Source of the DNA: Planctomycetota bacterium | Lineage (GTDB): Bacteria > Planctomycetota > MHYJ01 > JACPTZ01 | Length of the DNA stretch: 64,000 bases | Assembly (NCBI GenBank): GCA_016192525.1 | Contig: JACPTZ010000091.1 | Coordinates: 124,001 to 188,000, forward strand | Reading direction: 5' to 3' | Shown here: positions 628 to 5,593 of the stretch, piece by piece | How positions within the stretch are numbered: position 1 is the stretch's first letter | How the letters are laid out: each line of letters starts with the position of its first letter | Made by a program: the position numbers and the translations under genes | Notes under the pieces: generated by a model | The model's input: only the letters and a program-made list of their open reading frames with translations | Database searches by the model: none | Told to the model about the DNA's origin: nothing

Positions 628-1308
628 ATGACCCTCCCCCCCCTCTCCATCGACCCGGACATCGCCCGCGCCTCCACCCTCCCCGCCGAGGTGTACCGGG
701 ATCCGCGGTACTTCGACCTTGCCCGCGAGCGGGTCTTCACGCGCACGTGGCAGTTCCTGGGCGAGGTCGGCGTCCTCACGGAATCCGGGTCGGTCGCCCC
801 GTTCACGCTCCTCGAAGGTCTCCTGAACGAGCCGATCCTCCTCACGCGCGACGCGGCCGGGGAGATCCGCGCGCTCTCCATCGTCTGTACCCACCGGGGA
901 AACGTCCTCGCCGAGGCGCCATGCAGGACGCCGGCGATGCGATGCCGATATCACGGCCGGAAGATCGCGGGGTACTACTACTGGCTCTTCCCGAACACGA
1001 TGTTCAACTTCTACCCGTGGGGAATCTCGATCAACCTCGTCCAGCCGCTCGCGCCGGACCGGACGCGGGTGCGCTATCTCGCGTACGTGGGGGACCGGTC
1101 CCGGCTCGGAAAGGGGGCGGGCGGGTCGCTCGACCGGGTGGAGCGGGAGGACGAGGCGATCGTGGAACGGGTGCAGCAGGGGATCGCCTCGCGCTTCTAC
1201 GGGCGCGGCCGCTACTCGCCGCGGCACGAACGCGGGGTGCACCACTTCCACCGGCTGCTGGCGAGGTTTCTGACCGAAGCGCCGGAAGTCCCGGCCCGCA
1301 CCCTGTAG
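628..1308 (+). CDS. Rieske ring-hydroxylating oxygenase alpha subunit, internally deleted
   Basis: The 226-residue product starts like a Rieske non-heme iron oxygenase. It has the [2Fe-2S] ligand pattern CTH (about residue 87) then CRYH (about residue 107). It ends like the C-terminal part of the catalytic domain (GYYYWLFPNTMFNFYPWG, then VHHFHRLLARF). The family is usually about 350-450 residues. Here the sequence jumps from YHGR straight to the YYYWLF motif, so roughly 150 residues that normally hold the mononuclear iron ligands (two His, one Asp) are missing while the frame stays open. It may keep the Rieske cluster but should lack oxygenase activity. A TAGAAT box at 612-617 sits 10 nt before the ATG. 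It is best regarded as a decayed gene unless expression is shown. Confidence 0.75.
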   Translation: MTLPPLSIDPDIARASTLPAEVYRDPRYFDLARERVFTRTWQFLGEVGVLTESGSVAPFTLLEGLLNEPILLTRDAAGEIRALSIVCTHRGNVLAEAPCRTPAMRCRYHGRKIAGYYYWLFPNTMFNFYPWGISINLVQPLAPDRTRVRYLAYVGDRSRLGKGAGGSLDRVEREDEAIVERVQQGIASRFYGRGRYSPRHERGVHHFHRLLARFLTEAPEVPARTL

Positions 1309-1415
1309 CAGTCGCCGAGCCCCCACACGGAGTCGTTTCACATCGACGTTGACATCCGGGGCCGCGGGGCTTCATACTGCCGGTCGACACGGGGCGCGAG
1401 AAAGGAGAGCGGTCC

Positions 1416-2369
1416 ATGGACACTCGACACGGGGCGGGATTCGTCTTCCTCCTGGTCTTCGGGGCGGGCACCGCCGTTCGGGCGGAGGACGACCTCAAGA
1501 CGGAGATCGCCAGCTTCAAGCAGGAACTCGACGGCCTGCAGTCGATGCTGACCGATCCCGCGGCCCACCTCGACCGTCTGACCCGACTCAAACAGCAATT
1601 CCTCGCGCTTGATGCGAGACCGGATCTGGACCGGGGGTCGACCAACTCCTGGCGACTCTCGCAGGAGATCGGCAAGATCGAGGCCGCCTTCGGGGAGTAT
1701 GACTCCGCCGTTCGCCGATACCGGGAACTTCTCGGCCGGTTGACCGACAAGGAATGGGTGCCGGGGACCGTCTGGTTCCTCTGGAAGTACGCGGTCAGAT
1801 CTGGTGATCCGAAGTTGCTGAAGGAAGTCGCCGCCACCGTCATCGAGAAAGACCCTGAGGGGCCGATGGCCACGCGGCTCGTCCGGGAGAAGGGCCCGCC
1901 CTACGCCGGCCTCATCGGCAAACCGGCCAAGCGGCTGGCGGGCAAAGACGTCGGCGGTCGCGCCGTGAATCTGGGCGCGATGAAGGGCAAGCTGGTGATC
2001 GTGCACTTCTGGGGCACGTGGTGAGGGGCCTGCACCCGGGAATTCCCGGATCTTGTGCAGTTGCACAAGAAGCTGGAAGCGAAGAAGGACGTGGTCCTGG
2101 TCACCGTGAACTGCGGGGAACCGCGGGCCACCCTGGACGCCTACCTGAAATCCCAGGGGGGGGAGGGAATGCTGACGCTCCATGACGAGAAGGGCGTCCT
2201 CGCCCGGGCGTGGGGAGTGGCGGCCTACCCGTCCAACTTCATCATCGACGAGACCGGAGTCGTGCGCTCGGCCGGGAATTCGGAATTCGACCTGGACCTC
2301 CTCGGCGACCTCATCGGGGATTTCGAGGTCCGTCAGTCCCGCAAGGAGGCCGAGAAGGAGAAGAAGTAG
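1416..2369 (+). CDS. Secreted TlpA-like thioredoxin, candidate selenoprotein (TGA read as Sec203)
   Basis: The reading frame 1416-2369 is interrupted only by TGA at 2022-2024. Read through, it gives 317 residues: a Sec signal peptide (about residues 1-24, cleavage near VRA), a helical region, then a TlpA/thioredoxin domain. The TGA falls exactly at the first cysteine of the redox motif (HFWGTW-x-GAC, residues 203-206). The thioredoxin fold continues afterwards with the cis-proline motif AYPS (Pro272). This is the pattern of UxxC thioredoxin-like selenoproteins, in which Sec replaces the nucleophilic Cys. A stem-loop starts six bases after the TGA. The start has a good Shine-Dalgarno sequence (AAGGAG at 1402-1407). 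If TGA is a true stop, the product is a 202-residue protein without active site, and 2055-2369 would be a fragment. Confidence 0.7.
2030..2060 (+). promoter_or_regulatory. Candidate SECIS-like stem-loop after the TGA codon
   Basis: CTGCAC (2030-2035) can pair with GTGCAG (2055-2060). Inside this stem lies the perfect palindrome CCGGGAATTCCCGG (2036-2049), giving an apical loop about 16 nt after the TGA with G at its first position. An alternative hairpin, CTTGTGCA/TGCACAAG (2052-2069), has GT in its loop. Both fit the loose bacterial SECIS description, but no folding was computed. Confidence 0.45.
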
Positions 2370-2510: not shown

Positions 2511-3686
2511 TCAAACATCTTTGCGGTCCGGCGGGTCTCCTCCTTCGTCCACGGGGGCCGTCACCAGCGCGTGCACCATCTCCCGGAGCCAGTCCACTTC
2601 CTCGCTCGAACAGCCGACCCCGAATTCGAGCGACTGCTCCCCGGCGCGGGCGTGAACCGCCCAGCCGGGACGGAGCATGGTCCGGGCCGGCGCCAGTTCA
2701 GACCGGCCGGTCCTCAGATCCTCGATCGCACCGGCCGCCAGTTCGATCTCGGTGCGGAGCAGGAGGTGCCGCCGTTCCAGCCGGAGGCGACGGGGAGACG
2801 CGATGACCCGCTCGCGGATCCGGGTGGTCCCCGGGATGAGCCACGTCCCGACCCCGGCCACCCCCAGGGCCAGCGCGAGTGTGAACACGCTCAGAACGAG
2901 ATCGCTCGGGGAGGGTCCTCCGGAGGGGGATCGGGACAGGATCACTCCGATCCCTGCCAGCAGACCACCTCCGACGAAGACCGCCACGGCCAACGCCAGC
3001 CGGTGGGTCCAGCGATATCCCCTCGAGGGGATGTCGAACACGACCTCGTCCCCCTCCACCTCGTACCCGATCCGGCTGTCCTCCGGCTGGGATGGAAACT
3101 CGCGCTCCCCCGCGCGCCCGGAGGCGCGCTCGCGAAGCGGAACTCCAATCTCGTCCGCCCGGAGATCGACCGGCGCGGACCCGGTGGCGTCCCGGAACAT
3201 CGCGCCGAGAAACCGGGCGACGACGACCGCCTTGTCGCGAGCGGCCTTGTGCTCATCAAGGCTGACCAGGACTACCTCTCCGTGGCGGGTCGGCAGCCGC
3301 ACGCGGAAGCGCGTGTGCGTGCCGTGGCCGGTGAACACCTCATGTTTAGAAAGGGTGACCGGGGCCTCGTCCTTTACGAGTGTGGTCCGGAACGGGACGG
3401 CGACGAGCAGGTTCCACTCCTTGCGCACGGTCCGACGCGTGCGATCGATGATCACGCGGCTCGGGCTCCGTCCGATGGCCGCGCCTCCAACGACGGCCGC
3501 GATGCCGAAGAGGATCACCTTGATGTTCTTGGAGCGGATGGCCTTTCGCGTCGAGGCCGAGGGAACAAGCGCCAGCGCGATCAGGCCGATGCCGAGGAGG
3601 AGAAGCGCCGCCCCGGTGAGGGCGGAGTGACCGCCGTAGCGGAGAAACTCCATCTGGTCGGGGTCGGGGGAGTCGGGGGATTTCAT
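2511..3686 (-). CDS. Hypothetical membrane protein, paralogue of the gene at 4406-5593
   Basis: The 391-residue protein has two N-terminal hydrophobic segments (about residues 22-42 and 55-75), a soluble middle part, a second membrane pair (about residues 230-290) and a C-terminal soluble domain ending in SSEEVDWLREMVHALVTAP. I recognise no catalytic motif or named family. The neighbour at 4406-5593 shares the layout: a central conserved line (SRIGYEVEGDEVVFDIPSRG here, SRIEWEVQEDEVVFDLPPRG there), the second membrane pair, then the C-terminal EFGxGxSxEExxWxRxM motif. The two flank a GNAT gene on the same strand, suggesting local duplication. The role is unknown; a membrane-anchored PH-like or stress-related protein is possible but unsupported. 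Confidence 0.75.
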   Translation of the reverse strand: MKSPDSPDPDQMEFLRYGGHSALTGAALLLLGIGLIALALVPSASTRKAIRSKNIKVILFGIAAVVGGAAIGRSPSRVIIDRTRRTVRKEWNLLVAVPFRTTLVKDEAPVTLSKHEVFTGHGTHTRFRVRLPTRHGEVVLVSLDEHKAARDKAVVVARFLGAMFRDATGSAPVDLRADEIGVPLRERASGRAGEREFPSQPEDSRIGYEVEGDEVVFDIPSRGYRWTHRLALAVAVFVGGGLLAGIGVILSRSPSGGPSPSDLVLSVFTLALALGVAGVGTWLIPGTTRIRERVIASPRRLRLERRHLLLRTEIELAAGAIEDLRTGRSELAPARTMLRPGWAVHARAGEQSLEFGVGCSSEEVDWLREMVHALVTAPVDEGGDPPDRKDV

Positions 3687-3755: not shown

Positions 3756-4409
3756 TCAGACGCCGTCGAAGACGGGCGGATACCTCACGGTCCCGCGCAC
3801 GCCGTCGAGGGCGCCGGGGAACAATTCGAGCGCCATGAAGACTTCGTCACGGACCAGGAAGGGCGGCTCGATCCCGAGCGGGCGGGCGGGGCGAAACCCG
3901 AAGCGCGGATAATACTCCGGATGACCCAGCACGATGACGATCCGGTGCCCGAGTGCGCTGGCGCGGTCGAGCCCGGCCCGCACGAGGTCGGAGCCGATGC
4001 CCCGCCGCTGAAACCCCGGCCTCACGGCCATGGGGGCGAGGGCCAGGGCGGGGTGCACACCGGCCGCAGGGGCGGGGACCGACCGGTCGTCGGCGGCCCT
4101 CTCGTCGGTCCCCACGGCATGGTTCGACAACGGTGGTGTCCCTTCCTGCAACGACGAGGTCGGGACCCGCCCGGCCGGCGTGGTCGGGACCCGTCCGCCG
4201 GACCGGAGTTCGATCCCGATCGGACTGAGCAGGATGTGCCCGACGACCTGCCCCTCCTCCTCCGCCACAAGCGAGAGCCTCGGGTCGAAGCCCGGCCCGC
4301 GCCGGATCGCTTCCACGAGCCGCCCCTCATTCTCCTGCCCGAAGGCGAGGCGATTGACTTCCGCGATGGCGGGCGCATCGGATGGGATCTCGGGCCGGAC
4401 ACTGGTCAT
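3756..4409 (-). CDS. GNAT N-acetyltransferase, YhbS-like, with in-frame repeat insertion
   Basis: This predicted acetyl-CoA-dependent N-acyltransferase of the YhbS type has unknown substrate. The N-terminal half (DAPAIAEVNRLAFG, LVAEEEGQVVGHILLSP) and the acetyl-CoA-binding segment APMAVRPGFQRRGIGSDLV (about residues 125-143) are typical, as is the later HPEYYPRFGFRPA. At 217 residues it is longer than the usual 165-175. The excess is about residues 69-119, rich in Gly, Pro, Ala and Arg, translated from a dispersed inverted-repeat element (4069-4174) that elsewhere in the window is intergenic. The insertion lies in the loop just before the cofactor-binding strand, so the fold could survive. 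The start ATG overlaps the stop of the upstream gene (4406-4409), indicating co-transcription. Confidence 0.85.
   Translation of the reverse strand: MTSVRPEIPSDAPAIAEVNRLAFGQENEGRLVEAIRRGPGFDPRLSLVAEEEGQVVGHILLSPIGIELRSGGRVPTTPAGRVPTSSLQEGTPPLSNHAVGTDERAADDRSVPAPAAGVHPALALAPMAVRPGFQRRGIGSDLVRAGLDRASALGHRIVIVLGHPEYYPRFGFRPARPLGIEPPFLVRDEVFMALELFPGALDGVRGTVRYPPVFDGV
4069..4174. repeat. Dispersed inverted-repeat element (copy 1 of 3), inside the GNAT gene
   Basis: The ends are related to GGCGGGTSCCGACC and its reverse complement. Similar elements lie at 49021-49125 and 51001-51104, both intergenic. All three share the internal run TGCAACGAYGAGGTCGGGACC near the right end (with one variation in copy 2). 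Confidence 0.65.
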
Positions 4410-5593
4410 GGGGCCAGCGTGGATCCTGGAGGAGCACTTGCAGGCGAAGGGATGGTGATTGCGGCGTCACTCTGCGCGCGAGGCAGCGGGGCCCTGACGA
4501 GGAGTTCGATCAGGTCGCGAACCCACTGCAGCTCCTCGCGGGAATAGCCCAGCCCGAATTCGAGTGTCTTTCGGTCGTCCGCCGCATGGACGATCAAGTT
4601 CGGCGAGACGATGAACCGAGAAAACTCCCGATTCGTCGGCACGACCACGAGTTCATCCAGTTCGCCCTCGATCCTCGAACTCCAGACTCTGATCGAGCCC
4701 AGCCGACGTTCGAGCCGCACCCCCCGATGCGAAGCCGCCACGCGTTCACGACATGCCAACGAACGCATGGCTGCGAGGAAGAGGCTCATGAAGCCGAGGC
4801 CGCCCACGAACGCCAACAACCAGAACAGGAGCATCCCGTCCGGCCTCTCAAACTCCCCCCTCGACCGAAGCCAGAGATCGTGGGCTAGATGAGCGATGGC
4901 GAGCATCAGGGCCACGCCCATCAGCAGCCGCCAGTTCAGCCCTCGGGGGGGCAGGTCGAACACGACTTCATCTTCCTGAACTTCCCATTCGATGCGACTG
5001 TTGAGGGGTTCGGGAGGAAGTTCGGGCGGGCCCCCACCCGCCGCGACCCGATCCCGCAGCGGCAGATCCAGTGTACTTGCAGGTCGATCGATGAGTTCCC
5101 CGCTGCTGAGGTCCCTGATGCCGATCCCCGCAAATCGTGCGATCCTCCTCGCGCGGCGTCTCGCCCTTGTGTAGAACCAGCAGAGTCCCAGATCGATCGA
5201 CTGACGGCCGGCCAAGTGGAGCGAGAACAGCGGGCCCCCCAAGTCGAGCGCGCCGCCGTTCGCGGATAGAATCTCAACCCTGTCGTAATCGTCCATCCGG
5301 CGCACGGTCGATCCAAATCGGACGAAGAAACGTCGGTAGGTGACAACGGTGCGCGTTCGACGGTCGAGCACCGCTGCGTCGTAGCAAAGGAGGGAGGCAG
5401 ACGCCCAAAGAAGGACGAGCGCCGCAGCGACACGTGCGACGGTCCCCCACCCTCCGGAGAGGATGGGATCGCTGAGGTCTGCGCCCTGCGACAAGGCCTT
5501 GGCCGCCAGGCCAAGGAAGAACGCGAACAGTACGACCACCGTGAGATGGAGCGGCTCAGTGCGCCTGATTTCCATTCGTTCAGGGTTGTTCAT
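4406..5593 (-). CDS. Hypothetical membrane protein, paralogue of the gene at 2511-3686
   Basis: The 395-residue protein has N-terminal membrane segments (about residues 15-38 and 50-72), a soluble region, a central conserved line (SRIEWEVQEDEVVFDLPPRG), a second membrane pair (about residues 222-290) and a C-terminal soluble domain ending in a motif shared with its paralogue (EFGLGYSREELQWVRDL). No enzyme motif is visible. It is the first gene of a short minus-strand operon: its stop overlaps the GNAT start by four bases, and the paralogue follows GNAT. The duplication looks old, because identity is restricted to the conserved lines. Function is unknown. Confidence 0.75.
   Translation of the reverse strand: MNNPERMEIRRTEPLHLTVVVLFAFFLGLAAKALSQGADLSDPILSGGWGTVARVAAALVLLWASASLLCYDAAVLDRRTRTVVTYRRFFVRFGSTVRRMDDYDRVEILSANGGALDLGGPLFSLHLAGRQSIDLGLCWFYTRARRRARRIARFAGIGIRDLSSGELIDRPASTLDLPLRDRVAAGGGPPELPPEPLNSRIEWEVQEDEVVFDLPPRGLNWRLLMGVALMLAIAHLAHDLWLRSRGEFERPDGMLLFWLLAFVGGLGFMSLFLAAMRSLACRERVAASHRGVRLERRLGSIRVWSSRIEGELDELVVVPTNREFSRFIVSPNLIVHAADDRKTLEFGLGYSREELQWVRDLIELLVRAPLPRAQSDAAITIPSPASAPPGSTLAP

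What the first reader, a model, noticed from the sequence alone, without database searches (positions are those of the whole stretch)
1416..2369. Candidate selenoprotein: TlpA-like thioredoxin with TGA at the first redox cysteine
The frame is open on both sides of TGA 2022-2024. The codon sits exactly where the family has the nucleophilic Cys (FWGTW-x-GAC), the partner Cys206 and the cis-Pro272 are intact, and a nested stem-loop follows six bases later. A random nonsense mutation or error would not be expected to hit that one codon out of 317. UxxC thioredoxins are a known selenoprotein class; a secreted TlpA-type member in this lineage would be notable.
Basis: partly seen in the sequence, partly recalled or inferred. 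Interest (0 to 1): 0.85.

Follow-up and report, generated by a model that had tools for sequence, protein, structure and literature searches.

The report
Selenocysteine-containing secreted TlpA-like thioredoxin
A gene that looks broken by a stop codon is almost certainly intact: the stop sits exactly at the reactive amino acid of a secreted redox protein and is very probably read as selenocysteine, a known trick that this bacterial phylum appears to use often in this protein family.

Summary
Frame 1416-2369 is open through a single TGA (2022-2024) at the first active-site Cys of a TlpA/ResA-like thioredoxin (FWGTW-U-GAC). The same genome bin carries selA, most of selB (cut by a contig end) and a 42%-identical paralogue on another contig with TGA at the same codon; two further UGA-containing thioredoxin-like genes lie elsewhere in the bin. 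Across 294 genomes of the phylum, the FW[GA]xW-TGA-xxC pattern occurs in 80, of which 74 have selA (p=1e-10). Replacing TGA by TAA/TAG gave one match in 59 genomes. A perfect 8-bp hairpin with an AGUU loop lies 34 nt after the UGA, at the same distance in the UGA paralogue, with one compensatory change; it fits the published bacterial SECIS model. selC and selD were not found in this 82%-complete bin but are common in relatives; this is the main gap. UxxC TlpA-like selenoproteins are an established kind, so this is a new member. It has a helical N-terminal domain that I found only in this genome, in three paralogues, one of which has Ser instead of Sec.

The parts
1349..1378 (+). Promoter-like TTGACA-N18-CATACT
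   Evidence: Consensus match only, 10 of 12; one found against 0.1 expected in shuffles
1403..1409 (+). Shine-Dalgarno-like AAAGGAG ahead of ATG 1416
   Evidence: Read directly from the sequence
1416..2369 (+). Selenoprotein gene: TlpA/ResA-like thioredoxin, 317 aa with Sec203
   Evidence: Open frame with TGA read through; Pfam AhpC-TSA E=4e-20; AlphaFold2 model, mean pLDDT 81
1416..1484 (+). Likely Sec signal peptide, residues 1-23 (hydrophobic core, VRA|ED cleavage)
   Evidence: Inferred from sequence; low-confidence N-terminus in the model; no signal-peptide program was run
1485..1905 (+). All-helical N-terminal domain, roughly seven helices, perhaps TPR-like
   Evidence: Helices H20-46 to H150-157 in the model; no Pfam match above cut-off; full-length homologues only in this genome
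1911..2276 (+). Thioredoxin domain (residues 166-287)
   Evidence: Pfam; ResA 1st9/2f9s by sequence E=1e-16 and by fold, TM 0.83 on target
2022..2024 (+). In-frame TGA read as selenocysteine, residue 203 of the U-G-A-C motif
2036..2049 (+). Upstream hairpin CCGGG-AATT-CCCGG
   Evidence: RNA fold; a hairpin is also predicted here in the paralogue
2051..2070 (+). Candidate bacterial SECIS hairpin: UCUUGUGC-AGUU-GCACAAGA, apical loop 34 nt after the UGA

Best explanation
The gene encodes an exported thiol-disulfide oxidoreductase of the TlpA/ResA type in which the attacking cysteine of the CxxC motif is replaced by selenocysteine (U203-G-A-C206). The most likely mechanism: SelB carrying Sec-tRNA(Sec) binds the hairpin at 2051-2070 just after the UGA and inserts Sec instead of terminating. 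The mature protein outside the cytoplasm then reduces or exchanges disulfides through a selenenylsulfide between U203 and C206. Shown: the open frame, the position of the TGA, the domain, the recurrence of TGA at this position, selA and selB in the genome, and a SECIS-like hairpin shared with a paralogue. Inferred: Sec insertion itself, export, reductase direction and substrate.
For: selA over cut-off (572 vs 268 bits); selB 5'-truncated at a contig start, 202-204 bits over model positions 92-581 to its end. Paralogue C203 (42% identity) has TGA at the same codon; bin genes C185 and C119 also carry UGA at the first active-site Cys position. The pattern occurs in 80 of 294 phylum genomes, with 0 matches for the reversed-pattern control in the rows listed. 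The TAA/TAG version gave 1 match in 59 relatives, where TGA gave 32 in those also drawn. 74 of 80 pattern genomes have selA, Fisher p=1.2e-10. Most SelD in relatives is itself read through one TGA, and tRNA-Sec is confirmed by ARAGORN at 30 loci. SECIS: 55 of 58 UGA genes pass the bSECIS energy/loop test against 33% of 88 Cys homologues, and shuffle z-scores still differ (p=9e-8). A >=5-bp stem with a [GA]GU[CU] tetraloop 16-37 nt downstream occurs in 27/58 UGA genes (0.13 expected) and 0/88 Cys genes (0.23 expected). The window and C203 hairpins share the 34-nt distance and AGUU loop, with one compensatory pair (U-A to G-C). The loop needs the Leu codon TTG, 4.7% of Leu codons in six genes sampled. 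Coding constraint continues after the TGA: dN/dS about 0.53 after and 0.59 before.
Against: selC and selD were not found in this bin. At 82% completeness and 227 contigs, both being lost is plausible but unproven. No read support or proteomics was available. The bSECIS contrast is partly driven by GC (65% in UGA genes vs 51% in Cys genes). The UGA genes are related to one another, so the counts are not independent. The hairpin region encodes a conserved LVQLH motif, so protein constraint also preserves it.
Confidence: 0.92

Rival explanations
1. A pseudogene: a chance nonsense mutation made Cys203 into a stop and the rest is decaying.
For: A single TGC-to-TGA change would give it, and selC and selD were not found in the bin.
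Against: The same codon is TGA in a 42%-identical paralogue and in dozens of relatives; dN/dS and codon-position GC are unchanged after the TGA; TAA/TAG almost never occurs at this codon.
Confidence: 0.03
2. A sequencing or assembly error at one base.
For: The genome is a fragmented assembly and no reads were available.
Against: The same position is TGA in an independent gene on another contig and in many genomes assembled separately.
Confidence: 0.01
3. UGA is reassigned to another amino acid genome-wide (Trp or Gly codes).
For: One in-frame UGA in a coding frame.
Against: Only this UGA in 64 kb interrupts a redox motif, and only three have coding-like flanks; the Ser paralogue C108 ends at TGA; selA and selB are present; Trp or Gly would not suit the nucleophile position.
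Confidence: 0.01
4. UGA mostly terminates, giving a short helical-domain protein, and only a fraction is read through, so the switch is regulated by selenium.
For: The helical N-terminal domain lies wholly before the UGA, and Sec insertion is typically inefficient (general knowledge).
Against: The 202-residue product would end inside the thioredoxin fold at its active site, so the second half would probably not fold.
Confidence: 0.03

Closest known systems
UxxC 'thiol-disulfide isomerase-like' (cd02966, TlpA-like family) and 'Redoxin family' UxxC selenoproteins in the catalogue of PMC13188914
   Same: Thioredoxin-fold TlpA/redoxin domain with Sec at the first position of the motif
   Different: This protein adds a helical N-terminal domain for which no Pfam match passed the cut-off; catalogue sequences were not aligned here
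ResA of Bacillus subtilis (PDB 1st9, 2f9s)
   Same: Closest solved structure by sequence (E=1e-16) and fold (TM 0.83 on target)
   Different: ResA has Cys in both motif positions (CEPC), lacks the N-terminal helical domain; 28% identity
NF041054, ResA-like WAxxUGC motif-containing protein
   Same: ResA-like domain with Sec in the active-site motif
   Different: Scores 39 bits against a cut-off of 300; motif here is WGTWUGAC
UGA paralogues in the same bin: C203 (FWGTWUPAC), C185 (FWGFWUGPC), C119 (FWTYCUINC, in a 613-residue open frame)
   Same: UGA at the first active-site Cys position of a thioredoxin-like domain
   Different: Only C203 shares the N-terminal domain and the AGUU hairpin; C185 and C119 lack such a hairpin in the test

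Membership tests
Bacterial selenoprotein | In-frame UGA with coding sequence on both sides | tested here: met
Bacterial selenoprotein | Homologues with Cys or Sec at the UGA position | tested here: met
   58 UGA and 88 CxxC homologues aligned at this position, 3 others
Bacterial selenoprotein | bSECIS hairpin: 3-9 nt loop with G in first two positions, 16-37 nt from UGA, at most -7.5 kcal/mol (PMC13188914) | tested here: met
   AGUU loop, 34 nt, -17.0 kcal/mol
Bacterial selenoprotein | selA and selB in the genome | tested here: met
   selA complete; selB truncated by a contig end, and below the curated cut-off, probably for that reason
Bacterial selenoprotein | selC (tRNA-Sec) and selD in the genome | tested here: inconclusive
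   Not found in the 82%-complete bin; top tRNA hits are Ser, Cys, Leu and others; the weak selD hit at C132 looks like ThiL by inspection; present in 36 and 41 of 59 genomes searched
Bacterial selenoprotein | Selenium shown in the protein | not testable with these tools
   Needs 75Se labelling or mass spectrometry
TlpA/ResA-like thioredoxin | Thioredoxin fold of the AhpC-TSA/Redoxin type with CxxC-type motif and cis-Pro | tested here: met
   motif is U-G-A-C
TlpA/ResA-like thioredoxin | Extracytoplasmic location | tested here: inconclusive
   Signal-like N-termini in window and paralogues by eye only
NF041054 WAxxUGC_long | Score at or above curated cut-off of 300 bits | tested here: not met
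   39.4 bits

The most novel reading that the evidence does not exclude
In this phylum, exported TlpA-like thioredoxins have been converted to selenocysteine forms on a large scale, up to six per genome by one motif alone, many with a near-invariant GGUC hairpin exactly 31 nt after the UGA, so that a large class of redox proteins is probably mis-annotated as broken genes.
Probability: 0.6. Interest if true: 0.55.

Novelty: new member of a known kind. Interest (0 to 1): 0.42.

Why it matters
A gene caller that treats TGA as a stop ends this protein at residue 202 and hides its active half; the same will happen to many relatives. The set gives dozens of natural Sec and Cys variants, and one Ser variant, of one thioredoxin family with a simple, shared candidate SECIS hairpin, useful for testing why selenium is used outside the cytoplasm and what SelB needs in the RNA.

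Tried and rejected
(1) selC in the own genome by Rfam model and by a pattern drawn from relatives' tRNA-Sec: none found. (2) selD in the own genome: the only hit of note is a ThiL-like gene. (3) Orthologues with the N-terminal domain in 392 phylum genomes: none outside this genome at E<=1e-24. (4) Named genome collection: 64 relatives at 23-62% identity; the search patterns were built with Cys at this position, so it could not well reveal UGA forms. (5) Whole-region folding alone is weak evidence: bSECIS z-scores average only -0.55 in UGA genes; the loop-specific test is what discriminates. (7) The phylum is not named by the tools; Planctomycetota is my guess from genome sizes and some named hits, not a result.

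Full report
OBSERVATION. The frame from ATG 1416 to TAG 2369 is interrupted only by TGA 2022-2024. The translated product with Sec at residue 203 matches AhpC-TSA, Redoxin and Thioredoxin_8 across the TGA. Its nearest solved relatives are ResA structures. The alignment puts the TGA at the first active-site Cys; Cys206 and Pro272 are intact. Codon-position GC is much the same on both sides of the TGA. In the whole 64 kb window this was the only TGA with coding-like flanks that falls in a redox motif.

NOT AN ERROR OR A CHANCE MUTATION. The same genome bin (4.18 Mb, 227 contigs, 82% complete) has a full-length paralogue on contig C203, 42% identical, with TGA at the same codon. A third paralogue, C108, has TCC (Ser) there but keeps the second Cys. 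Two more distant thioredoxin-like genes in the bin carry UGA at this position: C185 (FWGFWUGPC) and C119 (FWTYCUINC). Among 59 genomes searched (this one and its relatives) many TlpA-like hits have exactly one TGA, and in those read it lies at this codon. A DNA pattern for FW[GA]xW-TGA-xxC was found in 80 of 294 genomes of the phylum. The same pattern with TAA or TAG gave one match in 59 genomes, where the TGA pattern gave 32 in those also drawn. 74 of the 80 pattern-bearing genomes have selA, against 118 of 214 others (Fisher p=1.2e-10).

MACHINERY. selA is intact (contig C17, 572 bits). selB is open at the first bases of contig C90 and runs to its C-terminus. No tRNA-Sec was found: the best Rfam hits are ordinary tRNAs according to ARAGORN, and a pattern of the kind that fits 29 of 30 relatives' tRNA-Sec genes found none. 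No selD passed the cut-off. tRNA-Sec was found in 36 of 59 genomes and selD in 41 of 59, and most of these selD genes contain one TGA themselves. Several relatives with selA also lack selC in their assemblies (for example G016, G018, G020, G051), so loss through incompleteness seems common here. I treat the absence as a gap, not as a contradiction.

SECIS. The published bacterial model asks for a 3-9 nt apical loop with G in its first two positions, 16-37 nt from the UGA, at -7.5 kcal/mol or below (PMC13188914). The window has a perfect 8-bp hairpin UCUUGUGC-AGUU-GCACAAGA (2051-2070), loop 34 nt after the UGA, -17.0 kcal/mol including a short lower stem. The C203 paralogue has a 7-bp hairpin with the same loop at the same distance and one compensatory pair change. 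The loop uses the Leu codon TTG, which is 4.7% of Leu codons in six genes sampled. Of 58 UGA genes 95% pass the model, against 33% of 88 Cys homologues. That contrast is inflated by GC content, but shuffle-corrected scores still differ (p=9e-8). A stricter test, a stem of 5 or more pairs closed by a [GA]GU[CU] tetraloop, was met by 27 of 58 UGA genes and 0 of 88 Cys genes (0.13 and 0.23 expected). I chose that loop class, so it is descriptive rather than blind. Most of the 27 share GGUC at exactly 31 nt. These genes are related and the hairpin overlaps a conserved protein motif, so the counts are not independent.

PROTEIN. The AlphaFold2 model (mean pLDDT 81) has about seven N-terminal helices and a thioredoxin domain with Sec203 just before its first long helix. 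The closest PDB folds are ResA (TM 0.83 on the target). The N-terminus looks like a signal peptide, by eye only. The N-terminal domain has no Pfam match above a cut-off, and full-length homologues were found only in this genome among 392 searched. The mechanism I favour is the ResA/TlpA one with a selenol as the attacking group: U203 attacks a substrate disulfide, C206 resolves it, and a selenenylsulfide remains to be reduced by a membrane electron donor. The substrate is unknown; cytochrome c maturation or general repair of exported proteins are the obvious candidates from general knowledge of the family.

KNOWN OR NEW. UxxC TlpA-like and redoxin selenoproteins are listed in a 2026 catalogue (PMC13188914), and selenoproteins with Sec genes are described in Planctomycetes (PMC4807772). 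This is therefore a new member of a known kind. What I did not find described is the density of UGA-containing TlpA-like genes across this phylum, and the lineage-specific N-terminal domain; only open-licence papers could be searched.

Noticed in passing
window 667-1305 (+): Rieske/ring-hydroxylating oxygenase alpha subunit that looks shortened inside: Rieske part joined to the end of the catalytic domain (Pfam positions 98-207 of 208), 213 residues.
   Followed up: partly
window 2511-3686 (-) and 4406-5593 (-): Two similar-looking predicted membrane proteins of 391 and 395 residues with no Pfam match.
   Followed up: no
L054 2229-3143 (-), contig C108: Paralogue with Ser in place of Sec/Cys (FWEAGSDAC) but the second Cys kept; the hairpin sequence is lost. 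Possibly a non-catalytic or single-Cys form.
   Followed up: partly
L056, contig C119: Thioredoxin domain in a long, apparently NHL-repeat-like open frame with CUxxC (FWTYCUINCHH): UGA right after a Cys.
   Followed up: partly
many relatives, e.g. L035, L048, L060, L137, L141, L153: Near-invariant hairpin CACGAGC-GGUC-GCUCGUG exactly 31 nt after UGA in FWGDWUGPC-type proteins.
   Followed up: partly
genomes G269, G187, G165, G222: Carry 2 to 6 UGA TlpA-like motifs but no selA was found; probably incomplete assemblies.
   Followed up: no
window 40706 (-): Another in-frame TGA with long open frame on both sides and coding-like composition, no redox motif.
   Followed up: no
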